Below are positions 30,178-45,201 of a stretch of 64,000 nt of DNA, in pieces (positions within the stretch are counted from its first letter, which is position 1; every line of letters starts with the position of its first letter). The notes beneath the pieces were generated by a model, which ran no database searches, was not told where the DNA came from, and worked only from the letters and a program-made list of their open reading frames with translations. A program made the translations under genes and the position numbers. Source of the stretch: Terrirhizobium terrae (lineage in GTDB: Bacteria; Pseudomonadota; Alphaproteobacteria; Rhizobiales; Rhizobiaceae); assembly GCF_030323265.1 (NCBI RefSeq), contig NZ_CP104990.1, positions 124,001 to 188,000 on the forward strand, in the 5' to 3' direction.

Positions 30178-32298
30178 ATGCAGCTTTTTCGAAACCATCT
30201 TCTTGTCACGACAGCTGTCGCGTTCGCCGTTTCCGGCGCTGGGATAGCGATAGCACAGGAGCAGCAGGATACGACGCTCGCGCCGATCGTGATCCAGGGA
30301 CAAGGCGAAGGCGACCCGCGCGGCCCCGTTGACGGATACGTCGCAAAGACCAGCGCCACGGCATCCAAGACGGGAACGCCTATTCTCGAAACGCAGCAGT
30401 CGATTTCTGTGGTGACGCGGGATCAGATCGAAGCACAGGCGGCTCAGACCCTTGGTGAGGCCTTGAACTACAGTGCAGGCGTCGTCGGCCAGCCGTTTGG
30501 GGCCGATCCCCGCTTCGATTCCCCGATCGTCCGCGGCTTCGATGGCAGGCAGTTGCAATATCTGAATGGCCTCAAGCTGATGCGCACGGCGGGCGCGCCG
30601 ACCGTTGAAGTCTACGGTCTCGAACGGGTCGATGTCCTTCGTGGTCCTGCCTCCGTCATGTATGGTCAAGGAAATCCGGGCGGCATCATCAATCAGGTCA
30701 GTAAACGTCCGCAGTTCGAGAACTTCGGTGAGGTCGGAACGCAGGTCGGCAGCTACGATAATTACGGTGCTTTCTTTGATTTCGGCGGCGTGATCCCCAA
30801 CCACGAGGCGTTCGCCTACCGTTTGACAGGTCTCGCGAAGACTGCCGGCGCACAGACGGATAACCTGGACAATGACCGATACTTCATCGCCCCCGCGCTG
30901 ACGTGGAAGCCGGATGAAGATACATCGCTCACCATTCTCGCCAGCGTTCAGCACGACAACCCGAGCAGCCCTTCCGGCCTTCCGCCGCAATACGTTCTGG
31001 GAAACTCGGATTTCAAACTTCCGCGCGACTTTTTCGTCGGCGATGAAAGCTTTGACGATTCCAGCAGGACGTTGACCAATTTCGGATATGAGTTCGAGCA
31101 TCGCTTCAGCGAGATATGGACGTTTCGGCAAAACCTTCGCTACACGAATTTCGACTGGAATTATCAAGCGCTCGGAATGGCGTCCGCAGGACTTGGAGCT
31201 GACGGCCGCACGCTGGCGCGAACAGCGACCTTCCAAGACGAAAACCTGAATACGTTTAACGTCGACAACAACTTGACGGCGGAGTTTTCGACGGCTGCAG
31301 TCGATCACAAGGTTCTTCTCGGCCTCGACTATCGCTACTTCGACAACAATGTACGGACCCGTTTCTTCCGCGCGACACCGCTCGATGTGCTGGATCCGAG
31401 CTACGGTGGACCGATCTCGCTTCTGGCGCCGACACTCGATACCAAGGTCAAAAGTGACCTGTCACAGGTCGGCATCTATGTTCAGGATGAGTTGGCCTAT
31501 GATAACTGGCGCGCTACTCTTGGCCTTCGCCAGGACTGGGCGTCGACGCGCGGTTCCACGACGAACGGGCTCACCGGCGTTTCTCGCTCGCTTGATCAGG
31601 ACGACCACAAGCTGACCGGTCGCGCAGGCCTGAGTTATCTGTTCGACGGCGGAATCGCCCCCTACATTAGCTACGCGACGTCTTTTGATCCGGTCGCGAG
31701 CTCGGCAGGCGCGGATTTCAAGCCGAGTGAAGGGGAGCAGTGGGAAGCGGGGATCAAGTACCAGCCCGACGGCTGGAACGGCTTCTTCTCAGCTGCCGTA
31801 TATGACCTTAAGCAGACCAATGTGCTCCGTACCGTTGAAGGTGTTACACAGCAGATCGGTGAAGTGCGTGTCAAAGGCGTCGAGCTTGAGGGCGTGATTA
31901 GCCTGTCTCAAGGTCTCGACCTGCGGGCCGCATATACTTACACCGATGCTGAAATCGGCGCGGGCGCTGATGACGGCAATCGCGTCGAGAACGTTCCACG
32001 TAACGCCGCAAGCTTGTGGGTAAATTATACCTTCCAGGAAGATACTGCCCTCAACGGGTTTGGTATTGGTGGCGGCGTTCGCTACGTGGGGCAGCGTTTT
32101 GGAAACAGTGCCAACACTTTCGACCTGGATGGTGTGACCTTGTTCGATGCCGCGCTGACCTATCGCAAGGATAACATCAAGGGATCGCTTAATTTCCAAA
32201 ACCTTGGCGATGAAAAATATGTTGCGAGCTGCAGCACGTTCGGCTGCTACTACGGTGATGGTCGCACTGTCATAGGGAAGCTCAGCTATACCTGGTAA
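30178..32298 (+). CDS. TonB-dependent siderophore receptor (FhuA/FpvA-like)
   Basis: 706 residues, the normal length for the group. Signal peptide: LLVTTAVAFAVSGAGIAIAQ. A TonB-box-like segment (DTTLAPIVIQG) follows, then the plug domain (TQQSISVVTRDQIEAQ, YLNGLKLMRTAGAPTVEVYG, ERVDVLRGPASVMYGQGNPG) and a 22-strand type barrel ending in aromatic YTW. It resembles hydroxamate (ferrichrome-type) receptors. Downstream are FhuD-like and FhuB-like genes 4 bp away and overlapping, so the three form one siderophore uptake operon. Start ATG 30178 has only a weak GGGGGC site. Iron control is likely but no Fur or Irr box could be defined. Confidence 0.93.
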   Translation: MQLFRNHLLVTTAVAFAVSGAGIAIAQEQQDTTLAPIVIQGQGEGDPRGPVDGYVAKTSATASKTGTPILETQQSISVVTRDQIEAQAAQTLGEALNYSAGVVGQPFGADPRFDSPIVRGFDGRQLQYLNGLKLMRTAGAPTVEVYGLERVDVLRGPASVMYGQGNPGGIINQVSKRPQFENFGEVGTQVGSYDNYGAFFDFGGVIPNHEAFAYRLTGLAKTAGAQTDNLDNDRYFIAPALTWKPDEDTSLTILASVQHDNPSSPSGLPPQYVLGNSDFKLPRDFFVGDESFDDSSRTLTNFGYEFEHRFSEIWTFRQNLRYTNFDWNYQALGMASAGLGADGRTLARTATFQDENLNTFNVDNNLTAEFSTAAVDHKVLLGLDYRYFDNNVRTRFFRATPLDVLDPSYGGPISLLAPTLDTKVKSDLSQVGIYVQDELAYDNWRATLGLRQDWASTRGSTTNGLTGVSRSLDQDDHKLTGRAGLSYLFDGGIAPYISYATSFDPVASSAGADFKPSEGEQWEAGIKYQPDGWNGFFSAAVYDLKQTNVLRTVEGVTQQIGEVRVKGVELEGVISLSQGLDLRAAYTYTDAEIGAGADDGNRVENVPRNAASLWVNYTFQEDTALNGFGIGGGVRYVGQRFGNSANTFDLDGVTLFDAALTYRKDNIKGSLNFQNLGDEKYVASCSTFGCYYGDGRTVIGKLSYTW

Positions 32299-32302
32299 AC
32301 CC

Positions 32303-33198
32303 TTGGATCTTAAATCACCGGTGCATTTGGGGCGTCGAGAATTCGTTCTCGGCGTCGCTGCTTCTTTGGTCGGTGGCAGGGCCTTGGCCGTAGGCGAGCC
32401 GCGACTTGCCGCAATCGACTGGGCGATGCTCGAAACCGCGATATCCCTGGGCGTGATGCCCGTGGCTGCGACTGAACTTATTCAGTTCCGCAAGGATGCC
32501 ATTGAGCCGGAAATCCCTCAGACCGTGATAGATCTCGGTCTGCGGGGCACCCCAACTTCGAGCTTCTTCAGCTCTTAAAGCCCGATTTGATCCTGCTTTC
32601 TCCATTCTACACACGGCATCAGGCCGCTTTGGAGCGGATCGCGCCGATCATCTCGTTGCCTTTCTACATACGAGGCGAGCCGCCATTTGAAAAAGCTGTT
32701 TCGGCCATCCAACGTCTCTCAGAGCGACTGCACAGGCAGGATGAAGCATCAAAGGTGCTTGCAGGCATTGAGGCCCAGTTGAAGGAGTATCGCGAAAGTC
32801 TCGCGCAATTTGCTGGCAGGCCGTTCTATCTCGTCAATGTAGGCGATGCCCGGCATGTTCGCGTATTCGGGTCGGATAGCATGTTCGGCAATGTTCTTTC
32901 CAGAATGGGTCTGCAGAACGCATGGACAGATAGGTCCCGCTATACTTTCGCGGCTCCTGTACCAATCGAACAACTGGCCGCCCGAGAAGATGCGCGCATT
33001 GTCATCGTTTCCGAGATACCTGTCGAAGCGCGAAGTGGCTTGAAGACCAGCATGATCTGGAACTCTCTAGTTCCGGTTAAGGAGCACAGGATCTTGATGC
33101 TCGATAACATCAATCCCTACGGCGGCGTGATTGCGGGGATGCGGTTTGCCCGCCTCCTCAGTGAGGCACTGTTGGCCGAGGGCGGGCAAGAGCAATGA
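32303..33198 (+). CDS. FhuD-like siderophore-binding protein (frameshifted near 32557)
   Basis: The N-terminus has a Tat-like leader (GRREFVLGVAASLVGGRALA), as in FhuD proteins of rhizobia. Then comes the periplasmic-binding fold start LAAIDWAMLETAISLGVMPV. Near 32557 a C is missing; the other frame continues FELLQLLKPDLILLSPFYT and VEARSGLKTSMIWNSLVPVK to TGA at 33198. Full length about 298 residues is normal. It delivers ferric siderophore to the membrane permease. The start is TTG 32303, 4 bp after the receptor stop; GTG 32321 is an alternative. The stop overlaps the permease ATG by 4 bp. Confidence 0.85.
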
Positions 33199-35152
33199 GA
33201 CAGGCGGTCATCGTTGGCGGAACCGCACTTCTCAGTGCGTTGGTTCTCTTCTTGCTAACTGCGAGCCAGCATTTGAGGATATCGGATTGGCCCGATGCCC
33301 TTTTCGGTTATGGACCATCAACACTCGACGAGATCATACTTCTCTATGGAATTTTCCCGAGAGCCGGGGTTGCGGTAGTCGCCGGTGCCGCATTGGGGCT
33401 ATCGGGAGCACTGCTTCAGCAGTTATTGCGCAACCCAATTGCGGATCCATCAACGCTCGGCATATCTGCCGGCGCACAGCTCACGATCGTGGTAGCGACG
33501 CTTTTCTTCCCGGAGTTCCTGGATGGCAGTCGCACTCTGGTCGCCCTGTCGGGTGCTGGTGCTGCCGCAACGATCGTCTTTGCGCTCGGTTGGAGATCCG
33601 CCTTCGAGCCAGTCACCATGGTCGTGTCCGGCATGCTGGTCGGTGTCACGGCTGTTGCCTTGTCATCTGCGCTCACTCTCGCTCAGGGCGAGTATTTGAT
33701 GTCGCTTATAACGTGGAACGGTGGCTCGTTGAGCCAGCAGGACTGGTCTGCATTCAATGCGCTGTCAATCGAGCTTGTGATTGGCATGGCTTTTGCGCTG
33801 CTGCTTGTCCGACCCTTATTGCTGTTGGGACTTGGTGACGCCAGCGCCACGTCCCTCGGTGTCAGCCTGCGCGGTATAAGATTGGCGGCCGCGATCGTTG
33901 CTACGGTTTTAGCTGGCTTGGTTGCCGCAAACGTCGGCTTGGTCAGTTTTGTCGGATTGGCCGCCTCCGCAATCGTGCGCGGATGTGGCATACGCAGGCC
34001 GTCAGCCGTACTCGCACTTTCCCCTTGGCAGGCGGTTTGTTCCTCTGGCTATGTGATGGAGCGGTGCAGGCGGTATCTGGCGCGACCGGCGAGACTTTCC
34101 CTACCGGTTCCGTCACCGCACTGATAGGCGGTCCTGTATTACTATGGCTGTTGCCTAAAGTGCGAACGCTGCCGGCAACGGCCCCATCTCATGGCAACAC
34201 GCGACGTCTCCAATTTGCAAGCGGTATGGCCGGATTCCTAGCCTTCCTCCCGATCATTCTGGCCCTGGCGTTTTTTGTCGGCAACGATGGACAGATCTGG
34301 CGCGTCCTGTCCTATACTGAAGCGGGAGAACTTCTTCAGTTGCGCTGGCCCCGCTTATTGGCCGCCGCGGGAGCAGGAGGCCTTTTGGCGCTGACGGGGG
34401 CAATCCTACAGCGGATGACCGGAAACCCAATGGCCAGCCCAGAAGTAATTGGGGTGAGTGGTGGTGCGGGGCTCGGGTTTGCGGCCTCGCTGACTCTCGT
34501 TCCCGCGGGCGGCCCTTACAGCCTCGTCATTGGAGCGGCGCTGGGAGGGCTGGCGGCTATGTCGGTCGTGTTGGCTTTTGCTCGCAGCCACAATCTCCCT
34601 CCGGAAAAGCTGCTTCTGGCGGGGATTGCGGTCAGTTCCTTGAGCTCATCGATGTTGGCGGTCCTCATGGCTGCGGGAGATCAACGAGCATGGCAGATTC
34701 TCGCTTGGATCGGTGGTTCAGCCTCCGCCGCAACCCCTGCCACTGCGATCCTCCTCGCGACCCTGTCGATTCTGGTCATGCTCGGTACGATTACGCTTGT
34801 CCGTTGGCTGACTGTCCTCCCGCTAGGTCAAGCCACTGCGCACAGTCTCGGTATCCCGATCGTGAGCAGCAGGGTGACCATACTTGCGTTGTGTGGCCTC
34901 TCAACCGGCGCAGCGTCGGTGCTCGTCGGACCTTTAAGTTTCGTGGGGCTTATCGCGCCCCATATTGTGATGCGGGCTGGGTTCGTGTCCGCACGAGACC
35001 ATCTGGTATCATCTTTCGTTTTGGGGGCATTGATCATGGCTTTTGCCGATTTCGGGGCAAGGACAGTCACATTCCCCTACGAGTTGCCGCTAGGGCTCTT
35101 CGCCGCGATGGTCGGGGCTCCGTACCTCATCTGGCTAGTTAGTCGAAGATGA
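33195..35152 (+). CDS. FhuB-like double-length siderophore ABC permease (frameshifted near 34000)
   Basis: Two FecCD-type halves are fused, as in FhuB. Half one (33195 onward): GAALGLSGALLQQLLRNPIA then DPSTLGISAGAQ, and SFVGLAASAIVRGCG. A shift near 34000 joins PLAGGLFLWLCDGAVQ of half two, which has ALTGAILQRMTGNPMASPEV then IGVSGGAGLG and VGLIAPHIVMRAG. About 652 residues in total. It should import ferric hydroxamate across the inner membrane. Its FhuC-type ATPase is not next to it: a cytochrome operon follows instead, so the ATPase must be encoded elsewhere or shared. Confidence 0.88.
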
Positions 35153-35461: not shown

Positions 35462-36177
35462 ATGAAGACCCAGATCCTATTCATAGGTCTCTGTTCCATC
35501 ACGCTTCTCACCAGCATTGCGACGGTGGAAGCGCAGACCGCGGATACTCAAGGCATGGCGGAGCGGGTACAGGCTTGCACGCCGTGCCACGGAGCGCAGG
35601 GTAAGGGCACGAACGATCCTTACTTCCCCAGATTGGCAGGAAGCCTTCCGGCTACCTCTATAACCAACTCGTTGCCTTCAGGAACGGTCGGCGAAAGTAC
35701 CCGCCGATGAATTATCTCCTGCAGTTTCTGCCGGATCCTTACCTGAAACAGATTGCCGAATATTTTGCGGAACAACGTCCGCCACAGCCCCCGCCGGACC
35801 CGATCGTGGTGAGCGACGCCGTCAAGGATCACGGTCGTATGCTCGCTACAGCTGGCGACATTGATCGTGGTATTCCTGCCTGCGTGGCTTGCCATGGCTC
35901 TTCACTCACAGGGCAGGAGCCCGGCATTCCCGGTCTCTTAGGGCTGAGGGCCAGCTATCTGAGCGCTCAACTCGGTGGCTGGCGCTATGGAACACGCACG
36001 GCTTTGTCACCTGACTGTATGCAGATTGTCGCGGGACACCTGACGGAGAACGATGTTCGCGCGCTAGCCGCCTGGCTGGCGTCCTTACCTGCACCCGAAA
36101 ACCCTGTGCCCGCAGCTGTCGGGAGCTTCTCGCTACCTCTCGCATGCGGCAGCCAGCCATCGGAGGTGCAGCAATGA
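35462..36177 (+). CDS. Dihaem c-type cytochrome, c4-like (frameshifted near 35645)
   Basis: Signal peptide ILFIGLCSITLLTSIATVEA. Haem motif one is CTPCH (near residue 39). A shift near 35645 joins the second part, which has CVACH and the usual GHLTENDVRALAAWLASLPA helix. About 238 residues with two haems: a c4-type electron carrier in the periplasm. ATG 35462 was chosen for the signal peptide. The stop overlaps the next cytochrome start by 4 bp, beginning an operon of electron-transfer proteins. Confidence 0.85.
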
Positions 36178-37442
36178 AACGCTCCCTGGCACGAACTTCT
36201 GAGCTGGTTTTCCGGTCTGCTGTAGCTGCTCTCCTCGGCATCTGTCTGGGAACCGAGGCAAAGGCGGAAGACCGCAACCCGTCTAATATCATCGAGAAGG
36301 GTGAGTATCTGGCACGCGCAGGCGATTGTATCGCTTGCCACACCGCTCCCGAGGGAAAGGTTTTCGCCGGGGGACGGGCGATGCCTACGCCGTTCGGTAC
36401 GATATACACCTCGAACATAACGCCTGATCCGGAAACCGGGATCGGGAAGTGGACAGCTGACGACTTCTACAGGACCATGCATGAAGGGCGGTTTCCGGAT
36501 GGAGGTCTTCTCTATCCGGCAATGCCCTTCGCTTCCTATACCAAGGTCACTCGTGAAGACAGTGATGCGATCTATGCGTATCTGCGCTCCATTGAGCCTG
36601 TCTCCAGGGAGAATAGGGAGCACGATCTGGACTTCCCCTACAATAACAGGACTCTCATCCTGGGCTGGAGAACACTCTTTTTCAGCCAGGGCACCTACAA
36701 GCCCGACCCGGCGATGTCGGCTGAGTGGAACAGGGGCGCTTACCTTGTCGAGGGCCTGGGCCATTGTGGCATGTGCCACACGCCGATCAATGCACTTGGC
36801 GGAAACTCGGAGTCCGACGCCTTCAAGGGCGGCCTGATCCCGAACCAGAATTGGTACGCGCCGTCTCTGACGTCCAACAAGGAAGCCGGTCTCGGGCTAT
36901 GGAGTATCGAAGAGATCACCGATCTCTTGCAGAAGGGAATTTCCCACCGCGGTGCGGTTTACGGGCCGATGGCGGACGTCGTCTACAACAGTCTTCAGTA
37001 CCTGAACGATGCCGACACCAAGGCTATGGCCGTCTACCTCAAGAGCATCGCTCAAGACAGTCCGAAACCAGTAACCTCGCGGCTTCCGCATGCCGAAAGC
37101 AGTCTTCTCTTGAGCCTCGGGAAGGCCGTGTACGACCGCGACTGCGCAAGCTGCCATGGCGTAAACGGCGAGGGCAGGCCGCCCCATTATCCTCCACTCG
37201 CGGGCAATCAGTCGATCCAAATGGATTCTGCCGTCAACGCAATTCGTATGGTCCTCAATGGTGGCTATCCGCCCGGCACTTACGGCAATCCGATGCCGCA
37301 CGGAATGCCGCCGTTCTCGATTAGCCTCTCGGACGACGAGGTTGCGGCAGTTGTCAGCTACATCCGCACGTCATGGGGAAATGCCGGCGCACCGGTGAGT
37401 GCCGCGGAAGCCAATCAGCTGCGGTCAGCACCGCTTCAGTGA
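36174..37442 (+). CDS. Triheme c-type cytochrome, alcohol/sugar dehydrogenase subunit type
   Basis: 422 residues from ATG 36174. After a signal peptide (SAVAALLGICLGTEAKA) three haem motifs appear: CIACH (about 55), CGMCH (about 200) and CASCH (about 325), each with downstream Met candidates (MPTPFGTIYTSNITPD; MPHGMPPF). This is the layout of the membrane-linked cytochrome subunit of quinoprotein/flavoprotein dehydrogenases such as alcohol, gluconate or fructose dehydrogenase. No dehydrogenase catalytic subunit is encoded next to it; instead oxidase subunits follow, so it probably feeds electrons to that oxidase. A longer frame to 36144 exists but ATG 36174 gives the coupled 4-bp overlap. Confidence 0.92.
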   Translation: MKRSLARTSELVFRSAVAALLGICLGTEAKAEDRNPSNIIEKGEYLARAGDCIACHTAPEGKVFAGGRAMPTPFGTIYTSNITPDPETGIGKWTADDFYRTMHEGRFPDGGLLYPAMPFASYTKVTREDSDAIYAYLRSIEPVSRENREHDLDFPYNNRTLILGWRTLFFSQGTYKPDPAMSAEWNRGAYLVEGLGHCGMCHTPINALGGNSESDAFKGGLIPNQNWYAPSLTSNKEAGLGLWSIEEITDLLQKGISHRGAVYGPMADVVYNSLQYLNDADTKAMAVYLKSIAQDSPKPVTSRLPHAESSLLLSLGKAVYDRDCASCHGVNGEGRPPHYPPLAGNQSIQMDSAVNAIRMVLNGGYPPGTYGNPMPHGMPPFSISLSDDEVAAVVSYIRTSWGNAGAPVSAAEANQLRSAPLQ

Positions 37443-37490
37443 GGAAAACAATGATTAACACAGAAGGTCCAGATCGAGATCCTGGTGTGC

Positions 37491-37631
37491 ATGACGCGAG
37501 AGTCGATCTCGATCGTGACGAGCGGACCTCATGGCGCGATAGTTGTAGCGGGAATAGCGACCTTCGTTGTTGTCGCCATGTGGCTCCTGTTCTACTGGCT
37601 CGTATTTCTCCCAAGGGGTGCCGCACCATGA
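37491..37631 (+). CDS. 46-residue single-TM protein, probable small oxidase subunit
   Basis: A short frame from ATG 37491 to TGA 37629-37631 encodes MTRESISIVTSGPHGAIVVA followed by the hydrophobic span GIATFVVVAMWLLFYWLVFL and a short RGAAP tail. One TM helix of about 23 residues is predicted. Its TGA overlaps the ATG of oxidase subunit II (ATGA), the same coupling used by all other genes in the operon. This argues that it is real. B-family (ba3-like) oxidases often have a small extra TM subunit. A second, better ribosome site (GAGGAAAACA) precedes an ATG at 37451 in another frame; a frameshift joining the two cannot be excluded. Confidence 0.65.
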   Translation: MTRESISIVTSGPHGAIVVAGIATFVVVAMWLLFYWLVFLPRGAAP

Positions 37632-38191
37632 CCGTTGGCGAGCACCGATCTGAAAGCGCTGCTGTCGCTGAGAAGATAGAGCGGCGGTGGGCGGCAATCT
37701 CAATTCTCATCATCGTTTTCCTGACCGCTATGGCCGCCGTTGCGGGCATACATCAAGCGACGATGCCCCAAAGTCGGGTCGAGCTAATCGATCCGGAGAG
37801 AATTCATTTATCCGGTGAGTTTGTCGAAACGAACCTCGGGTCTGCCGTAGAGCCTGACGGTTCCGTTACGCTGCGGGTCGTAGCTCAACAATACTCCTTC
37901 ACCCCTCAATGCATCGTCGTGCCGGTCGAGACGAAAGTGACGATCAGAGGAACGAGCGCCGATGTCGTCCATGGCCTCATCATCCAGCAGACCAACGTCA
38001 ATGCGATGCTTGTTCCCGGATACGTCTCGGAGCAAGTGGCGCGTTTTCCCAAAACCGGTGATCACCTGATGCCGTGCCAGGAGTTCTGCAGCGTGGGACA
38101 CGAAGGAATGTGGGCGATGGTGAAGGTCGTCGAGCGCGAAGAATTCAAGGCGCTTTCAGCAGGCAAGCAGAGGATCAGCTGTGTTAAATAG
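37628..38191 (+). CDS. Cytochrome c oxidase subunit II (CuA protein)
   Basis: 187 residues. One TM helix near the N-terminus (AAISILIIVFLTAMAAVAGI), then a periplasmic cupredoxin domain with the binuclear CuA motif C-x-E-x-C-x-x-x-H-x-x-M (CQEFCSVGHEGM) and an upstream CuA His (DVVHGLII). The single TM helix and short length are typical of B-family (ba3-type) oxidases rather than the two-TM aa3 type. It accepts electrons from the operon's cytochromes. It overlaps the previous small gene by 4 bp and the subunit I gene by 11 bp. Confidence 0.93.
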   Translation: MTVGEHRSESAAVAEKIERRWAAISILIIVFLTAMAAVAGIHQATMPQSRVELIDPERIHLSGEFVETNLGSAVEPDGSVTLRVVAQQYSFTPQCIVVPVETKVTIRGTSADVVHGLIIQQTNVNAMLVPGYVSEQVARFPKTGDHLMPCQEFCSVGHEGMWAMVKVVEREEFKALSAGKQRISCVK

Positions 38192-39805
38192 TCGACGTCT
38201 AATCCTCGCACATTTCTGGTTTGCCTTTGGCGTGTTCGGTTTCGCGCTGTTGCTGGGCGCATGGCAAATGTTCATCCGTAGCCCATTGGCGTCGTGGATC
38301 GGTAACCCCGAGTGGTACTATCGGTCGGTAACAGCCCATGGAACTATCATGGGCTACGTTTTCCCAACGCTGATTGCGATGGGATTTGGCTATGCCATCA
38401 CTGAGAGCGCGCTGAAGACGACACTCTACGGCATCCGCTGGGCCTGGACGGGCATCTGGATGATCCTCGTCGGGGCCATAATGGCGATGATCCCTGTGTC
38501 TGCCGGCCTTGCTTCCGTTCTGTATACCTTCTATCCGCCGATGATCGGCAACCCCTTCTACTATATAGGGGTCGTACTCGTTGTGGTCGGGTCATGGATT
38601 TGGGTGGCGTTGATGCCCATCAACCTCGCCCGATGGAAGCGCTCCAACCCGGGAGCGCCGGTCCCGTTGGCGATGTATGCGAATGTCGCCGGATCCTTTC
38701 TGTGGGGATGGACTGCCGTCGGTGCCTCGCTTGAGCTTATTTTTCAAATAATTCCTGTAGCAGTCGGACTTCGCTCGACAATCGACGCTGGCCTTGCTCG
38801 AGTATTCTTCTCTTGGACCCTGCATGCCATCGTCTATTTCTGGCTGTTCCCGACCTATATCGCCTACTACACGATCGTTCCGAGGGCGATCGGGGGAAGC
38901 TCTACAGTGACTCGATGGCTCGGATATCTTTCGTGCTCTTCCTCGTCGTGGCCATGCCGATCGGCATACATCACACGTTCGCAGATCCGATGGTCGGCGC
39001 TGGCTTCAAGTTCATTCATTCAGCTTTCACGGCAATCGTTGCACTGCCAACCTTGCTCACGGTGTTCACGATATGCGCCTCCGTCGAGATTGCCGGGAGA
39101 TTGCGTGGAGGTCGCGGAGCATTCGGGTGGCTAGTGGCGCTACCTTGGCGTAATCCGACCATGCTTGCGGTCGCATTCTCCTTCATCATGTTGGGGTTCG
39201 GCGGCGCAGGCGGGTTGATCAACATGAGCTATCAGCTTGATGCGTCGATCCATAATACCCAGTGGATCACAGGACATTTCCACCTGATCTTCGGCGGCGC
39301 GATCGTCATCATGTACTTCGTGATTGCCTATGATCTTTGGCCCCATCTCACCGGGCGGAAATTGCAAGATCTCTCGCTTATGCGGCTCCAGCTATGGCTT
39401 TGGTTCATCGGAATGATCGTCACCACATTTCCTTGGCACTATGTCGGGATACTGGGGATGCCGAGGCGAATGGCCTACTACGACTATTCGCATCCTGCCG
39501 TTGCCGATCAAGCGATGCCGGTTGTCCTCTCGGCGGTCGGCGGGCTAATCCTGGTCGTCTCAGCGATCTTGTTCTTTGTCGTGCTGATCCGTGGACATCG
39601 ATCGCCGATCGCAAACCCAGGTGAATATCAGTTCGCAGTCGCAGTTCATCCGCCGCAACGTGTGCCTGTTGCCTTAAACAGTCATGGCCTGTGGGTCGCG
39701 CTGATGATCGGTTTGACGGCAACCAACTACGGGTTCCCGATCCTTCAGCTAGCCTTCCGCAGTGACACCTCCGTTCCGGCAATTTACGTTGGGGTGCAAA
39801 AATGA
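38181..39805 (+). CDS. Heme-copper oxidase subunit I, B-family-like (frameshifted near 38900)
   Basis: The first frame has the low-spin haem His (YRSVTAHGTIMGYVFPTLIA), many TM helices and the CuB His/Tyr motif WTLHAIVYFWLFPT (His-x-x-x-Tyr). One base is lost near 38900, in an AAGCTC stretch; the second frame continues with the CuB pair GIHHTFADP and the two haem ligands TGHFHLIFGG. Total about 541 residues. GTG 38181 is the start, inside the end of subunit II. No subunit III gene is present. This should be the O2-reducing proton pump subunit of a ba3-like enzyme, expected to have high oxygen affinity. Confidence 0.92.
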
Positions 39806-40593
39806 ACGGAGAGCGCCTTTTCAGTTTAGCCAACCGTTGGTTTTCGACGAGTGTCGCCCTAACGGTCATCATCTTTCTGCTTTCGGCCATAATCGGGTTT
39901 CTCCTGCTGCCATACGCAGATGAGGATAGTCGCTTCGCAAGCTTGTGGGACGCCATCTGCAGTGCTGCGGGCTTTCCGGTCAGCCGGTCGGCGACAGATG
40001 TTATCGTGCCCGAATTCAAGGTATCTTCCGCAACCTTCGATGTCGCAGGGCTCAGATCGCCGGAAGCCGTTTCGATCGGGCGTGGCGCAACGCTCGCGCA
40101 GCAATGCGCGATCTGTCACGGCCCTGAAGGGGTGAGCCGGGCCGACTCTCCGAACCTTGCTGGCCAGTATGCTGCGGTTATCTACAAGCAACTACACGAC
40201 TTCAAATCCGGCGCCCGGGTGAACGCGACCATGAGCCCGTTCGCGGTGAACATGTCGGAGCAGGATATGCTCGATTTGGCATCCTACTACGCCTACCTCC
40301 CGCGGCTTCCATCCAAACAGGGCGCTGGTTCCACGCCAGTGCCACTGATTGTCGCGAATGGCGCGCCGATGCGTGGCATCGCCCCTTGTGGCTCGTGCCA
40401 CGGCGGAATAGAGAGGAAGGAAGGCAGTCCTTGGCTCAACGGGCAGTCGGCGACCTATATTGAGGCGCAATTGAACGCGTTCGCATCGGGTGCCCGCAGA
40501 AACGATACCAGCCAGCAGATGAGAAACGTGGCGCGGGCTATGACGCCGGAAGAAATCAGGGCTGCTGCTGCCTATTATGCCTCGTTCCAATAG
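39802..40593 (+). CDS. Membrane-anchored dihaem cytochrome c, c4-like
   Basis: 263 residues. One TM anchor near the N-terminus (STSVALTVIIFLLSAIIGFL, residues about 16-36) is followed by two c-type domains with CAICH and CGSCH motifs, each with a Met-containing helix (MSPFAVNMSEQDMLDLASYY; MRNVARAMTPEEI). It overlaps subunit I by 4 bp and is the last gene of the operon, so a direct electron donor to CuA of this oxidase is likely. It is paralogous in plan to the first cytochrome at 35462, which lacks the anchor. Confidence 0.92.
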   Translation: MNGERLFSLANRWFSTSVALTVIIFLLSAIIGFLLLPYADEDSRFASLWDAICSAAGFPVSRSATDVIVPEFKVSSATFDVAGLRSPEAVSIGRGATLAQQCAICHGPEGVSRADSPNLAGQYAAVIYKQLHDFKSGARVNATMSPFAVNMSEQDMLDLASYYAYLPRLPSKQGAGSTPVPLIVANGAPMRGIAPCGSCHGGIERKEGSPWLNGQSATYIEAQLNAFASGARRNDTSQQMRNVARAMTPEEIRAAAAYYASFQ

Positions 40594-40795
40594 ATCCTCA
40601 GATCCAATGGCGGGACGCTTTGCAGTCTGAGGAAGGTTACCCGCGGACACAGCGTTCGTATCTAGATAGGCCAGCTAGAGGGCTGACGTCGACCGAATAT
40701 TGGGCTAAATGGTTGCCCTAACCAGCCAGCTGAAGCGCATCCGGAACAGTTACCGATTCTGAACTGGGTCCTTCGGCCTACAGACGGCAACGGAT

Positions 40796-42307
40796 ATGAG
40801 ACCTTTTCTACCCTCGAAGAACCTTCTCCCCAAGGCTCTCGCGGCGTGGGCAGTTGCCGCTATCGCCGCATTATGCCTGCTCGCCACCTATCAGTATCGA
40901 TGGGGAGTGGCGGAGCTTTCGGAGCAGGTCCGTGCAACAAATCTGTTGTTGGCTGAAAGATTAGCTCAACACGACGCGCATCTGTCAGCGTTGGGGGCTA
41001 TGGTGAGAATGTCACCGGACGAGCCGTCGTCTAACATTCAAGGGCTAGCGGATAACATCGTCACTCGGTACCCGCGGATCAAAGAGATCGCGACATTACG
41101 GATCCGTGGACAAGATGTGAGCACCGTCTCGTATGGAGCCGCTAAAAAGCCCGCCGTCGAGTTGGTACGCGATTCCGACGGCCTGCCGACTTTGGGGCAG
41201 GTGGGAGAAGTGGTGACAAGGGCCACGGCATCCGCCAATGCCTATGACATCTTTAAGCTCGTGGCTCCGGATCGGATGTTGCGACTGCGTATAGATGCCG
41301 ACGAGTTGCTGGGTGTTGATGACTTTCCTCCCGAATATTCCGTGACGTTGCTGTTGGGAGATCAGGTGATCTCCTCTCACCAGGCGGTTGGAAGGTCGCT
41401 CATCTCCGCGGAAAAATATCAGGTATCCAACAATGCCCATCAGCCCGTGAGGCTGCAGGTCGGGCGCAGCTTCGGTGTCTTGGAGCTGCTCCCACCGAGA
41501 CTTGTTGTGCCAATCCTCCTGATATTAGCTGGAACTGCTTGGCTTTTCGTACTCTATTTGGAGGCAAGCAGGGAGCGCCGTAGGCATGAACGACGAGCGA
41601 TGCTGCTTGAGCAGAACGCAAAGCTTGCGCATGCCGGGCGCGTCAACGCGCTCGGCGAATTGGCTTCCGGCATAGCCCACGAATTGGCACAACCGGTCGC
41701 GGCAATGTTGAGCCAAAGCCAGGCGGCTCGCCGGGCGATGTCGATGGGCCGATCCGATATTCTCGATCAGGCGCTGGACGCCAACATCCGTGAAGCCAAG
41801 CGAGCCGGCGATATTCTTAGCCGCATGCGTGCTTATGTCTCCGGCGCGGCTGCGCAAATGGAGAAGGTAAGCCTTGCCGATGCGTTGGGCGGCGCGCTGC
41901 GGATCGTGGAGTCTGATGTCGAACAGCGCGGAATTTCTCTTCACGTAAACTTCCCGGAGAAGCCGATCTGGGTTGAGATTGATGTCATTGCCTTTCAACA
42001 GGTCATACATAACCTGATCCGCAACGCTGCCGATGCAGTAGCGCATCTCCCCGACCCTGAGATAGCCCTCGCAGTGGAGGGCGAGGGAAATCTCGTCACG
42101 ATAACGGTGTCCGATAATGGGCCCGGAATCGAGCCGCTTTCGCTGCAGCATATATTCGAGCCGTTCTTCACGACGAAAGCCGACGGGATGGGGCTAGGCT
42201 TACCTCTATCCGCCCGCCTGATAGAAATGATGAATGGTTCGATCGATGCCCGTAACAATGGCGGCGCATGCTTCACGATCCGCCTGCCGTTGGAAGGTGC
42301 CGCATGA
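40796..42307 (+). CDS. Membrane-bound sensor histidine kinase with periplasmic domain
   Basis: 503 residues. TM1 (ALAAWAVAAIAALCLLATYQ, residues about 14-33), a periplasmic domain of about 200 residues, TM2 (VVPILLILAGTAWLFVLYL, near 240-260), then a short coiled coil and the HisKA helix GELASGIAHELAQPVAAM with phospho-acceptor near His295. HATPase: NLIRNAADAV, DNGPGI, FFTTKADGMGLGLPLS. The plan is like DctB/TtrS kinases. It overlaps the following response regulator by 4 bp and lies 202 bp after the oxidase operon, so it may control that operon. The periplasmic ligand is unknown. Confidence 0.92.
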   Translation: MRPFLPSKNLLPKALAAWAVAAIAALCLLATYQYRWGVAELSEQVRATNLLLAERLAQHDAHLSALGAMVRMSPDEPSSNIQGLADNIVTRYPRIKEIATLRIRGQDVSTVSYGAAKKPAVELVRDSDGLPTLGQVGEVVTRATASANAYDIFKLVAPDRMLRLRIDADELLGVDDFPPEYSVTLLLGDQVISSHQAVGRSLISAEKYQVSNNAHQPVRLQVGRSFGVLELLPPRLVVPILLILAGTAWLFVLYLEASRERRRHERRAMLLEQNAKLAHAGRVNALGELASGIAHELAQPVAAMLSQSQAARRAMSMGRSDILDQALDANIREAKRAGDILSRMRAYVSGAAAQMEKVSLADALGGALRIVESDVEQRGISLHVNFPEKPIWVEIDVIAFQQVIHNLIRNAADAVAHLPDPEIALAVEGEGNLVTITVSDNGPGIEPLSLQHIFEPFFTTKADGMGLGLPLSARLIEMMNGSIDARNNGGACFTIRLPLEGAA

Positions 42308-42885
42308 TCTATCTCATCGATGACGATGGATCGGTACGGGAGGCGCTCACGCTCCTGCTTACGACATATGGTAAGGAGGTCGCCGGATTTCCTGATGCCA
42401 TTCATTTCCTTGCGCATGTCGACAAAACCAAGCCCGGCATCGTAATTTCAGATCTCCGGATGCCGACAACGAGCGGTTTGCAGCTTTTGAGCAAGCTTGA
42501 AGAGCTAAAGATCGATTGGCCCGTGATAATGATAACCGGTCACGGAGATGTCGAAGCCTGTCGTCGCGCTTTCAAAGCTGGCGTGACGGATTTCTTCGCG
42601 AAGCCTGTCGATGAACACGTGCTTATGGATGCCATAACGCAGTGCGAAAATCAGCTGGCTGAGATCATTGGACGTGGCGAAGTTCGCTCACTTTTAGATC
42701 AGCTTACAGCTCGCGAGCGTGAGGTTGTGGAACTCGTATCGAAAGGCCTCGGCACCAAGGAAATCGCAACTGCTTTGGAGATCTCAGCAAGAACCGTTGA
42801 TAGCCATCGCGCAAGCGTGGCCGTCAAATTGGGCACACACGCTGTGGCAGAGCAAACGCGTCTCTGGCTGGCCGGGTATCCGTAA
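42304..42885 (+). CDS. FixJ/TtrR-type response regulator (REC + LuxR HTH)
   Basis: 193 residues. Receiver: IDDDG, phospho-acceptor D50 (VISDLRMPTTSG), T82 region MITGHGD, Lys in FAKPV. HTH: LTAREREVVELVSKGLGTKE and SARTVDSHRASVAVKLG. The recognition helix differs from the other three FixJ-type regulators here, so its DNA site should also differ. Co-expressed with the kinase through a 4-bp ATGA overlap. Likely targets are the oxidase operon upstream and the GlcG-like gene downstream. A palindrome overlaps its stop codon. Confidence 0.93.
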   Translation: MIYLIDDDGSVREALTLLLTTYGKEVAGFPDAIHFLAHVDKTKPGIVISDLRMPTTSGLQLLSKLEELKIDWPVIMITGHGDVEACRRAFKAGVTDFFAKPVDEHVLMDAITQCENQLAEIIGRGEVRSLLDQLTAREREVVELVSKGLGTKEIATALEISARTVDSHRASVAVKLGTHAVAEQTRLWLAGYP

Positions 42886-42895
42886 TTATACGGAT
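42878..42895. promoter_or_regulatory. Palindrome upstream of the GlcG-like gene
   Basis: ATCCGTA-ATTA-TACGGAT is a perfect 7-bp dyad with a 4-nt centre, covering the last codons and the TAA of the regulator gene and 84 bp before the next ATG. It could be an operator for the GlcG-like gene. A shared feature with the dyad at 35283 is the paired TAC/GTA elements. Confidence 0.45.
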
Positions 42896-42978
42896 GCGGC
42901 TCCGTGAAAGCCCCAATTTTTACAAGACCTATGACGGTTTAAGTTCTCCAAGAGGAAACTCGACACCCTGGAGAAAAA

Positions 42979-43467
42979 ATGAAACACGTCCTTCTTTCAA
43001 CCGCGTTCGTTGCCGTCCTAGCTGTCCCTACATTTGCTCAGGATACCGTAAGCCAGAAAAGCATAGGCACCGGGTTGGCAGTCGAAATCGCCCAGTCGGC
43101 CGTTGCTGCCTGCTCCGCGGAGGGTTACAACGTAACCGCTTCGGTAGTGGATCGCGCCGGCGTCCCGCTGGCTCTGGTCCGTGCTGAGGCTGCCGGCACC
43201 CATACCGCCGGTGCCGCGACGGCTAAAGCGTTCACCTCGTCCTCGTCACGCAATCCAACCAGCGCTATGGCTGATGCGGTTAAAAACAATCCCGTAGCCG
43301 CCGGCTTGGTCGATATTCCGGGCTTTCTGGTTTTGGCGGGTGGCGTCCCGGTCAAGTCGGGCAAGGAAACGATCGGCGCAATCGGCGTAGCAGGTGCTCC
43401 TGGCGGCAATCTGGACGAGGCTTGCGCAAACAAGGCTATCGAGAAGTATGCCGATCGCCTGAAGTAG
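42979..43467 (+). CDS. Exported GlcG/HbpS family protein (DUF336)
   Basis: 162 residues with a Sec signal peptide (VLLSTAFVAVLAVPTFAQ, cleavage after Ala). The mature part is a GlcG/HbpS domain: MADAVKNNPVAAGLVDIPGF, VLAGGVPVKSGKETIGAIGV and AGAPGGNLDEACANKAIE. HbpS of Streptomyces binds haem and works with a two-component system, and related GlcG proteins sit in glycolate or oxidase loci. Here it follows the kinase/regulator pair, so it may be a periplasmic haem or redox sensing partner of that kinase. That link is inference. Confidence 0.88.
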   Translation: MKHVLLSTAFVAVLAVPTFAQDTVSQKSIGTGLAVEIAQSAVAACSAEGYNVTASVVDRAGVPLALVRAEAAGTHTAGAATAKAFTSSSSRNPTSAMADAVKNNPVAAGLVDIPGFLVLAGGVPVKSGKETIGAIGVAGAPGGNLDEACANKAIEKYADRLK

Positions 43468-43849: not shown

Positions 43850-44077
43850 ATGGATTGGGTCCCTATCGTCTTCGTCACGTTCAAGGCTCTCGCGCTGGGC
43901 ATTGCCATGTTCTTCGCCATCAAATGGCACTATGATCAGGGAGGGAAGGGGGACACACGAGCGCTGTTGCGTACCGGCAGTACGATGGCCCTTGTCTTCC
44001 TACTGGCTTTGCTCGGCGTCGGTTTCGTTGCGTTCGAGCTTAGCGGAATGCTCGGTTTGGATCTGAGCTTACCATGA
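43850..44077 (+). CDS. Small two-TM membrane protein of unknown function
   Basis: 75 residues: one helix at the N-terminus (WVPIVFVTFKALALGIAMFF), a positively charged loop (KWHYDQGGKGDTRALLR) and a second helix (TMALVFLLALLGVGFVAFEL). The regular hydrophobic pattern and clean start/stop suggest a real gene, but there is only a weak ribosome site and I recognise no family. It stands alone between the GlcG-like gene and the OmpR-type regulator. Confidence 0.55.
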   Translation: MDWVPIVFVTFKALALGIAMFFAIKWHYDQGGKGDTRALLRTGSTMALVFLLALLGVGFVAFELSGMLGLDLSLP

Positions 44078-44450
44078 TCGCATCGCGACTAATCTACCCG
44101 CTCCAAGGCCTCGCTTCGCCCGCCGCTTCGTAATCTTGATTCCCGATTAGCGGTTCGTCGGCGCGGTTCATGTCGCTCCGCCACGCCAGGGAAAGCTGTC
44201 GGCGTCTCTGGAAACATGCGGACGTTGTCAACCTGCGTCCATTCTAAGTTTGGCGTGTTTGCATATCTCCCAAGCGTCTCGCCTTTAGGAAGATAGAAGG
44301 CTCCAAGCCCTGCGACATAACGCCGTATCTATAAAAAGATGCATTTAAAATGAATGTTTATACGCCTAGATACCTGTGAGCCGGGATAGGAGCGGCATAA
44401 CGTGGGCCACGTTAGCCCATGGGATATTAAAGCAGGAAGCAACGGCCGCC
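44078..44450. other. Intergenic region (373 bp) before the OmpR-type regulator
   Basis: No gene recognised. The last third is AT-rich. CATTT-A-AAATG (44342-44352) is a small dyad about 100 bp before the regulator start and may be part of its promoter. Confidence 0.4.
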
Positions 44451-45201
44451 ATGAAACATATTCTACTGGTAGATGATGGGTCTAATGCGATCGAGCTGAC
44501 GGCGGCTTACCTCTCTCGTTTTGGCTTCCGCGTCACCTCTGCCCGTGACAGTCAGCAGATCAAGAAAGTTATCCTGGCAGAAGTCGTCGACGTCGTCGTT
44601 GTCGACCTCGACATGCGTCAAGAGAATGGCTTGGACATCGTTCGTATTTTGGCATCACTTTCAGATGCGCCGATGATCATCATCAGTGGGAACCGCGTCG
44701 AGGAAGCTGACAAGGTCGTCGGCCTCGAGCTAGGGGCAAGCGATTATCTTACGAAGCCGTTTGGGAATAGAGAGCTGCTCGCCCAGAATCCGCTCGCTCG
44801 CGCGAAGGAGAAGTGACGCTACCGTTCAACGAGAAACGAAAGCCTACTCCTTCGAGGGATGGACGCTCCACGCAAAGCAACGAGTTCTTCAACCAACAGC
44901 CGGTCGAGACAAGAGATTGACGGCGGCCGAATTCAACCTGCTCGTAGCGTTTTTGCGCGCACCTCGGCAAATCCTGTCACGCGAACAGTTGATTGCTGCG
45001 TGTCGTCTGAACAACGACGCGATCTTCGATCGGAGCATAGACGTCACGGTTTTGCGTCTCCGGCGAAAGCTGGAGGTTGAGCCGGCAGCTCCCAAACTCA
45101 TCAAGACGAAGCGTGGTTTGGGTTATCTTCTCGAGGCCCATGTTGAGCTTCATGAGACCCCGAAACTACAGCGTGATGCCAGGAAGACATCTTATCGATA
45201 A
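44451..45201 (+). CDS. OmpR/PhoB-type response regulator (frameshifted near 44783)
   Basis: ATG 44451 begins MKHILLVDDG. The receiver has phospho-acceptor D52 (VVVVDLDMRQENGL), ISGNR and K in YLTKPF. A shift near 44783 (one base missing in GCCCAGAATC) joins the linker ELLARIRSLARR and the winged-helix domain (KRLTAAEFNLLVAFLRAPRQ, LSREQLIAACRLNND, RSIDVTVLRLRRKLE, KRGLGYLLEAHV). Full length about 250 residues. It is followed 10 bp later by a methyltransferase gene, so they share an operon. No kinase is adjacent; it may be phosphorylated by an orphan kinase. Confidence 0.85.

What the first reader, a model, noticed from the sequence alone, without database searches (positions are those of the whole stretch)
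35462..43467. Self-contained respiratory module: three multihaem cytochromes, a ba3-like oxidase and its own two-component system
Six genes joined by 4-11 bp overlaps or close spacing encode a dihaem cytochrome, a dehydrogenase-type triheme cytochrome, a 46-residue TM protein, single-TM CuA subunit II, B-family-like subunit I and an anchored dihaem cytochrome. A kinase with a periplasmic sensor, a FixJ-type regulator and an exported GlcG/HbpS-like protein follow. The triheme type normally belongs to a quinoprotein or flavoprotein dehydrogenase, yet no dehydrogenase is here. The set suggests a direct cytochrome-to-oxygen route, possibly for a periplasmic dehydrogenase elsewhere, controlled by a haem or redox sensing trio.
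Basis: partly seen in the sequence, partly recalled or inferred. Interest (0 to 1): 0.85.

Follow-up and report, generated by a model that had tools for sequence, protein, structure and literature searches.

The report
Seven-haem oxygen-respiration gene cassette
Six neighbouring genes, kept in the same order in many soil and plant-associated bacteria, encode an oxygen-consuming enzyme of a known family plus three haem proteins that likely feed it electrons; the sensor genes beside them here appear to be a separate unit, and what supplies the electrons is still unknown.

Summary
The six-gene cluster is real and conserved: all six genes lie in the same order in 70 of 73 genome loci and 7 of 7 plasmid loci of Alpha- and Betaproteobacteria. 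It is a B-family (ba3-type) cytochrome c oxidase with subunits I, II (CuA) and IIa (the "46-residue TM protein"), flanked by 2-, 3- and 2-haem cytochromes. Ligand residues and the Tyr pattern are kept in 77 of 77 unbroken copies. The triheme is a single clade split off from the other sampled trihemes. No triheme-using dehydrogenase lies directly beside it where I looked, and 8 of 44 carrier genomes lack both tested dehydrogenase families. The kinase/regulator/HbpS-like trio is not part of it: 0 of 80 loci, and it occurs alone elsewhere. A subset of promoters carries an exact FNR/FixK-type box (11 of 78 against 6 of 4540 control windows), suggesting low-oxygen control; the window's promoter has none. 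In this assembly three of the six genes are broken by frame changes, part of a genome-wide pattern. The oxidase core is known (PMC3128077 Table 1); my searches found no description of the six-gene unit.

The parts
35462..36177 (+). Gene 1: exported diheme c-type cytochrome (c4-like), split in this assembly into two frames (35462-35710 and 35707-36177); relatives have it as one gene
   Evidence: ORFs; PF00034 in the 3' piece; 2 CxxCH in 75 of the 77 loci with all six genes; single CDS in annotated plasmids
36174..37442 (+). Gene 2: triheme c-type cytochrome related to the cytochrome subunits of alcohol/glucose/fructose dehydrogenases; intact
   Evidence: Best PDB matches 8gy2_B, 8hdd_B, 9x0q_B, 7w2j_C; 3 CxxCH in 76 of 77 loci; own clade 98/97
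37451..37631 (+). Gene 3: oxidase subunit IIa (CbaD-like single TM helix); start and helix lie in different frames in this assembly
   Evidence: Directly upstream of subunit II; PX1-3G[T/A] plus downstream Trp in 74 of 79 loci, the criteria of PMC3128077
37628..38191 (+). Gene 4: CuA subunit II, one N-terminal hydrophobic helix
   Evidence: PF00116; best PDB match 1ehk_B, ba3-type oxidase; CuA motif in 80 of 80 loci
38181..39805 (+). Gene 5: B-family subunit I, split in this assembly (38181-39134 and 38813-39805)
   Evidence: PF00115 in both pieces; intact relative L012 matches ba3 chains, best E 7e-103; two pieces
39802..40593 (+). Gene 6: membrane-anchored diheme cytochrome (c4-like); intact
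   Evidence: PF00034/PF13442; hydrophobic stretch before the first haem motif in 78 of 79 loci
40796..42307 (+). Neighbour, not part of the module: sensor histidine kinase of a separate HK-RR-HbpS unit
   Evidence: HisKA/HATPase; unit found apart from the oxidase
42304..42885 (+). Neighbour, not part of the module: FixJ-type response regulator of the same trio
   Evidence: Response_reg + GerE; beside the kinase in 7 of 7 other genomes
42979..43467 (+). Neighbour, not part of the module: exported HbpS/GlcG-like protein of the same trio
   Evidence: PF03928 E 3.6e-26; beside the kinase and regulator in 6 of 7 other genomes

Best explanation
By sequence, the six genes at 35,462-40,593 encode a B-family (ba3-type) cytochrome c oxidase (subunits I, II with a CuA motif, and IIa) packaged with three c-type cytochromes carrying 2, 3 and 2 haem motifs, which likely pass electrons from the periplasmic cytochrome pool to CuA and so to oxygen, probably as a low-oxygen branch of respiration. 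Shown by sequence: oxidase identity, CuA, haem/CuB ligands, the active-site Tyr and K-channel positions, haem counts, gene order, inheritance as one unit. Inferred: the soluble diheme (gene 1) and the triheme (gene 2) collect electrons from several possible donors (bc1-derived cytochromes, or periplasmic dehydrogenases where a host has them), and the membrane-anchored diheme (gene 6) delivers them to CuA. The triheme looks like a dehydrogenase cytochrome that was captured by an oxidase and lost its dehydrogenase. Inferred from a subset of promoters only: FNR/FixK-family control. The HK-RR-HbpS trio is most likely an unrelated neighbour.
For: Order of all six genes kept in 70 of 73 genome loci and 7 of 7 plasmid loci (the 73 were selected by subunit II; L049 and L067 are cut by contig ends, L042 lacks a detectable IIa). 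Pairwise distances of five of the genes correlate at r 0.91-0.95 over 75 loci. PDB matches: subunit I of relative L012 to ba3 chains, best E 7e-103; subunit II to 1ehk_B, E 1.2e-21. In 77 of 77 unbroken subunit I copies: low-spin His pattern, CuB His/Tyr with two further Tyr, HH, HxH; Thr pair in 76 of 77. CuA in 80 of 80. IIa motif in 74 of 79. Triheme one clade 98/97, sister to diheme-triheme pairs without oxidase, split from the other 15 trihemes at 99/100. Flanking genes differ by lineage. Exact TTGATN4ATCAA in 11 of 78 promoters against 6 of 4540 control windows; at least 9 of 10 positions in 18 of 78 against 37 of 4540. Bll4482 of B. diazoefficiens, whose RefSeq number (NP_771122) is next to that of subunit II (NP_771121), is listed with the nitrogenase-like symbiosis pattern, as is FixK2.
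Against: Only a minority of promoters carry the FNR-type box; the window's own promoter (best 7 of 10, background level) does not, and only 1 of 28 betaproteobacterial ones reaches 9 of 10. Eight of the 11 exact boxes are from Bradyrhizobium and so not independent. I found no biochemical data on any member. That Bll4482 is the triheme rests on accession numbering and gene order, not on a sequence I compared. Nothing shows which cytochrome touches CuA. A Mo-cofactor-binding protein gene lies about 10.6 kb from the module in Mesorhizobium B2-1-1, so a dehydrogenase partner is not excluded there. In the window itself three genes have broken frames, so function in this strain is unproven.
Confidence: 0.66

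Rival explanations
1. Dehydrogenase-coupled cassette: the triheme is the cytochrome subunit for a quinoprotein or flavoprotein dehydrogenase encoded elsewhere, and the cassette sends its electrons straight to oxygen.
For: The triheme's best PDB matches are such subunits; two of the nearest non-module relatives on plasmids sit beside GMC oxidoreductase and Gluconate_2-dh3 genes. 36 of 44 carrier genomes have at least one of the two tested families somewhere.
Against: 8 of 44 carrier genomes have neither PF13618 nor a TIGR03075 match. Rhizobium sp. Root708 (G474) has only the module triheme and one partial match at E up to 1e-20. In the window's genome the GMC enzyme and a Mo-type enzyme have their own triheme and the PQQ enzyme is followed by a single-haem cytochrome ORF. 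The module triheme is a separate clade. Other dehydrogenase families were not tested, and one further split triheme of this genome (L215) has no partner that I identified.
Confidence: 0.15
2. bc1-bypassing cassette: the triheme takes electrons from ubiquinol, reversing the direction used by its dehydrogenase relatives, so the cassette is a complete quinol-to-oxygen chain.
For: Carrier genomes without the tested dehydrogenases exist; dehydrogenase triheme subunits normally meet the quinone pool (recalled).
Against: The module triheme lacks the C-terminal extension seen in the solved dehydrogenase cytochromes (the match ends 30-55 residues before their ends), though relatives L104 (GMC-type) and L200 have tails nearly as short. 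No quinone site was tested.
Confidence: 0.1
3. Nitric oxide reductase or NO-defence enzyme rather than an oxygen reductase.
For: In Mesorhizobium sp. B2-1-1 the module lies between nirK and NnrS, near ric and DUF2249 genes; in Caballeronia SBC1 near DUF2249 and hemerythrin genes. B-family NO reductases exist (PMC11388526 passages).
Against: The CuB-His/Tyr pattern is kept in 77 of 77 unbroken copies and the Thr pair in 76 of 77, as expected of an O2 reductase (role of the Tyr recalled). The NO-related neighbourhood is seen in two of the six annotated plasmid neighbourhoods.
Confidence: 0.05
4. In this strain the module is a decaying pseudogene cluster.
For: Three of six genes have frame changes.
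Against: Frame changes look genome-wide: ORF N50 336 aa against 410 and 409 in two same-genus genomes, two other triheme genes and one 16S copy are also in pieces, completeness is 91.25%. This points to sequencing or assembly indels.
Confidence: 0.2

Closest known systems
ba3-type (B-family) cytochrome c oxidase of Thermus thermophilus (1ehk; organism of the chains recalled), with subunit IIa (CbaD)
   Same: Subunits I, II and IIa in the order IIa-II-I; CuA subunit II; ligand, Tyr and K-channel positions
   Different: Here three c-type cytochromes with seven haem motifs are encoded in the same unit
Putative B-family oxidases of Burkholderia multivorans ATCC 17616 (YP_001585718/9) and Bradyrhizobium japonicum USDA110 (NP_771121) in Prunetti et al. 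2011 (PMC3128077; abstract, outline and passages incl. Table 1 rows seen)
   Same: Probably members of this very clade: same genera, and the tabulated subunit masses roughly fit the gene lengths here; sequences not compared
   Different: That table lists subunits II and IIa; in the passages I saw the flanking cytochromes are not described
Triheme cytochrome subunits of alcohol, glucose, fructose and aldehyde dehydrogenases (8gy2, 8hdd, 7w2j, 8gy3)
   Same: Three-haem architecture and sequence
   Different: No such dehydrogenase gene directly beside the module; separate clade from the sampled dehydrogenase-type trihemes
HbpS-SenS-SenR of Streptomyces (PMC4991794, listing and abstract start seen)
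   Same: Exported HbpS-family protein with a kinase and a regulator, like the neighbouring trio
   Different: The regulator here is FixJ-type; homology of the kinases was not tested. Not part of the oxidase module
cbb3 oxidase (FixNOQP)
   Same: Works like it if low-oxygen control holds: c-type haem relay to an oxidase, FNR/FixK-type boxes in a subset
   Different: Different oxidase family (B, with CuA; cbb3 is C-family without CuA, recalled)

Membership tests
B-family (ba3-type) heme-copper oxygen reductase | Subunit I most similar to ba3 structures | tested here: met
   Intact relative L012: the 18 best PDB sequences have E 7e-103 to 3e-100, 1ehk among them named BA3-type; next 7deg_A 4e-76; the rest 1e-15 or weaker (that all 18 are T. 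thermophilus ba3 and 7deg A. aeolicus is recalled)
B-family (ba3-type) heme-copper oxygen reductase | Haem and CuB ligands and active-site Tyr | tested here: met
   Low-spin His, CuB His/Tyr pattern, HH.F.DP and HxH each in 77 of 77 unbroken copies; L039 and L074 are broken and L067 is cut
B-family (ba3-type) heme-copper oxygen reductase | K-channel-type residues (positions recalled from T. thermophilus ba3) | tested here: met
   Further Tyr pair 77 of 77; Thr pair 76 of 77 unbroken copies; Glu before the subunit II helix in 71 of 80 by pattern and visible in 8 of the other 9
B-family (ba3-type) heme-copper oxygen reductase | CuA in subunit II and separate subunit IIa | tested here: met
   CuA motif 80 of 80; IIa motif with Trp 74 of 79 loci
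B-family (ba3-type) heme-copper oxygen reductase | O2 reduction and proton pumping | not testable with these tools
   Needs purified enzyme
Triheme dehydrogenase (ADH/FDH/GDH type) complex | Triheme cytochrome of the family | tested here: met
Triheme dehydrogenase (ADH/FDH/GDH type) complex | Adjacent or constant dehydrogenase subunit | tested here: not met
   No GMC, Gluconate_2-dh3 or PQQ dehydrogenase among the annotated genes of six plasmid regions (tables incomplete; a Mo-cofactor-binding protein lies about 10.6 kb away in L077); among 20 flanking-family representatives scanned only a short-chain (SDR) dehydrogenase occurs; 8 of 44 carrier genomes lack both tested families
Module controlled by the neighbouring HK-RR-HbpS trio | Trio conserved beside the module | tested here: not met
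   0 of 80 loci; 75 of the 77 loci with all six genes hold at least 2.5 kb after gene 6; trio without the oxidase in 6 of 7 other genomes
FNR/FixK regulon | TTGATN4ATCAA in the promoter | tested here: inconclusive
   11 of 78 exact and 18 of 78 with at least 9 of 10, far over control, but absent in the window; only 1 of 28 betaproteobacterial promoters reaches 9 of 10

The most novel reading that the evidence does not exclude
A mobile, complete 'plug-in' respiratory chain: the triheme, captured from a dehydrogenase, now takes electrons directly from the quinol pool (or from an unknown periplasmic or extracellular donor), so that one six-gene cassette moving between Alpha- and Betaproteobacteria gives its host a bc1-independent, low-oxygen route to O2.
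Probability: 0.13. Interest if true: 0.75.

Novelty: new variant of a known kind. Interest (0 to 1): 0.48.

Why it matters
It would define a widespread seven-haem form of the B-family oxidase in soil and plant bacteria, in which a dehydrogenase-type cytochrome appears to have been recruited to an oxidase. The unit may add a low-oxygen respiratory branch to symbionts such as Bradyrhizobium. In annotations the triheme can be called an 'alcohol dehydrogenase', as Bll4482 seems to be, which would mislead metabolic models.

Tried and rejected
Own two-component system: rejected by synteny. A shared promoter element between the trio and the module: alignments of trio intergenic stretches and of five module promoters showed none by eye; no inverted repeat was reported in the window's module promoter. 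Loss of a C-terminal membrane anchor as a mark of the module: dropped, because L104 and L200 have tails nearly as short. NO-linked function: two of six annotated neighbourhoods. NsrR-like pattern: 0 of 77. Near-identical plasmid DNA: none. Cupriavidus record L082 has no gene table. Papers: searches listed no paper that I recognised as describing the six-gene unit; only listings were seen for most hits, the library lacks most subscription papers, and one NO-reductase paper I asked for is not held. PMC4036050 (passages) says USDA110 has eight terminal oxidase complexes and does not contain the word ba3. A first residue pattern was wrong (0 of 79) and corrected; HH.FADP (50 of 79) was too narrow and HH.F.DP fits 77 of 77.

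Dropped rows: L031, L039, L049, L067 and L074 were left out of the distance comparison; L039 and L074 have broken subunit I and L067 lacks most of it, so they are outside the '77 of 77' counts. In the tree the label 'dehydrogenase type' means 'not module, not pair'; GMC genes were seen clearly beside L104, L205 and L213 and Mo-type genes beside L204, weak GMC matches in L210-L212, and the rest were not confirmed. Searches got 44 carrier genomes (41 of the 73 loci plus G000, G004 and G011) and got 17. Flanking families: 20 representatives picked from the 70 largest clusters listed were scanned.
Full report
What is there. The window is bases 124,001-188,000 of contig 3 (777 kb) of a 5.89-Mb, three-contig genome. 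Its 16S gene matches Rhizobiaceae best in the plasmid collection; among the 15 records listed the highest identity is 97.1% over 86% of the query, to a Neorhizobium record. Reading frames and families confirm six tightly packed genes: diheme cytochrome, triheme cytochrome, small TM protein, CuA subunit II, subunit I, anchored diheme cytochrome; then kinase, FixJ-type regulator and HbpS-like protein.

Broken frames. Gene 1 and subunit I are each split into two frames (for subunit I), and the small TM gene starts in one frame and continues in another. Intact copies exist in relatives. The breaks are not special to the module: outside it the window has FecCD-like permease and OmpR-like regulator genes in two pieces (families read by eye), two further triheme genes on contig 1 are in two pieces, one 16S copy is fragmentary, and ORF N50 in ten 20-kb samples of the genome averages 336 aa against 410 and 409 aa in six and four samples of two same-genus genomes. 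Sequencing or assembly indels are the simplest reading.

Conservation. A search with subunit II found 73 loci. All six genes lie in the same order and strand in 70 of 73; L049 and L067 are cut by contig ends and L042 lacks a detectable small TM gene. The seven plasmid loci fetched all have them. Five genes share their history (r 0.91-0.95 over 75 loci). The module is patchy: 3 of 57 genomes of the genus, own included, and 5 of 398 sampled over the phylum at E up to 1e-80, own included. The protein database holds 7390 similar subunit I proteins at E up to 1e-30 among 7998 scored, of which 120 were listed; that set may include other B-family oxidases. In a Burkholderia contaminans plasmid the module lies between inverted, 100% complementary arms of at least 4.5 kb that hold a Tn3-family transposase gene, so it can plausibly move as one piece.

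The oxidase. Subunit I of an intact relative matches ba3 chains best (E 7e-103), and subunit II matches 1ehk_B. Low-spin His, CuB His with the Tyr pattern, HH and HxH are kept in 77 of 77 unbroken copies, the Thr pair in 76 of 77, CuA in 80 of 80. The small TM gene satisfies the subunit IIa criteria of Prunetti et al. 2011 (PMC3128077; abstract, outline and passages seen): directly upstream of subunit II, one helix, PX1-3G[T/A] and Trp (74 of 79 loci). Their Table 1 already lists B. multivorans and B. japonicum oxidases that are probably members of this clade.

The cytochromes. Haem motif counts are 2, 3, 2 in 75 of the 77 loci with all six genes; L031 starts at a contig end and L074 has broken frames. 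The triheme's best solved relatives are the cytochrome subunits of alcohol, glucose, fructose and aldehyde dehydrogenases. In a tree of 46 trihemes the 28 module proteins form one clade (98/97), sister to three diheme-triheme pairs found without the oxidase and without GMC or Gluconate_2-dh3 matches nearby in Massilia (two) and Variovorax (other dehydrogenase types were not scanned there). The two groups together are split from the other 15 at 99/100 (some long branches, so deeper order is unsure).

Electron donor. No GMC, Gluconate_2-dh3 or PQQ dehydrogenase is annotated in the six plasmid regions. Dehydrogenases of other kinds do occur there: an iron-containing alcohol dehydrogenase and PdxA in L078, tartrate dehydrogenase in L076, a succinate dehydrogenase iron-sulfur subunit in L080, and in L077 a Mo-cofactor-binding protein about 10.6 kb from the module that could be a triheme-using type; by their product names none of these recurs between the regions. 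Among 20 flanking-family representatives scanned there is one short-chain dehydrogenase family and one MauG-like diheme peroxidase. Of 44 carrier genomes, 29 have a Gluconate_2-dh3 gene, 25 a PQQ alcohol dehydrogenase and 8 neither. In the window's genome three enzymes found have their own cytochromes: GMC with triheme (L213), Mo-type with triheme (L204), PQQ enzyme followed by a single-haem ORF (L216). A split triheme at L215 has no partner that I identified. So a fixed dehydrogenase partner is unlikely, but untested families remain.

Regulation. The trio is a unit of its own: in 7 of 59 other genomes (five at 56-61% kinase identity, two at 36-37%) the kinase has the regulator beside it in 7 of 7 and the HbpS-like gene in 6 of 7, with variable neighbours. 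Only one of the seven genomes, G004, also has the oxidase, on another contig. In the 80 module loci there is no HbpS-like match and no close kinase or regulator. Promoters of the module show an exact TTGATN4ATCAA box in 11 of 78 loci against 6 of 4540 control windows of the same loci. Eight of the 11 are Bradyrhizobium; the others are Faunimonas, Beijerinckia and an alphaproteobacterial MAG. At 9 of 10 positions Rhizobium, Sinorhizobium, Methylobacterium and Janthinobacterium join (18 of 78 in all). In Methylobacterium nodulans a Crp/Fnr gene lies just upstream. The window's promoter has no such box. In PMC6321122 (passages and table rows seen) Bll4482 of B. diazoefficiens, named 'alcohol dehydrogenase', is listed among genes with the nitrogenase-like symbiosis pattern, as is FixK2. 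Its accession NP_771122 adjoins NP_771121, the subunit II of PMC3128077 Table 1, so it is probably the triheme; I did not compare its sequence.

Conclusion. A B-family oxidase of known kind in a conserved six-gene, seven-haem package, probably a low-oxygen branch at least in some Alphaproteobacteria, with an unknown and probably flexible electron source.

Noticed in passing
40796-43467; L095-L101: Kinase, FixJ-type regulator and exported HbpS-like protein form an independent conserved trio, similar in make-up to Streptomyces HbpS-SenS-SenR. The regulator-HbpS gap holds a short inverted repeat (ACCGA..TCGGT in several relatives, ACGGA..TCCGT in the window).
   Followed up: partly
G000 genome-wide; 33195-35152 and 44376-45201 in the window: Genes outside the module are also split by frame changes, and one 16S copy is fragmentary; the assembly seems to carry many indels.
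   Followed up: yes
L079:4000-22432 (Burkholderia contaminans plasmid): The module lies between inverted, 100% complementary arms (3458 and at least 1083 nt, adjoining) that include a Tn3-family transposase gene: composite-transposon-like.
   Followed up: partly
L077 and L080: The module sits among NO-related genes (nirK, NnrS, ric, DUF2249, hemerythrin) on a Mesorhizobium and a Caballeronia plasmid.
   Followed up: partly
L198, L199, L103: Diheme-triheme cytochrome pairs related to genes 1-2 occur without the oxidase and without GMC or Gluconate_2-dh3 matches nearby in Massilia and Variovorax.
   Followed up: partly
30178-35152: A TonB-dependent receptor and FecCD-like permease genes (iron uptake by look) lie directly upstream of the module.
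   Followed up: no
43850-44077; L098:8000-8227: A 75-aa TM-like protein without a Pfam family lies near the trio here and in one relative.
   Followed up: no
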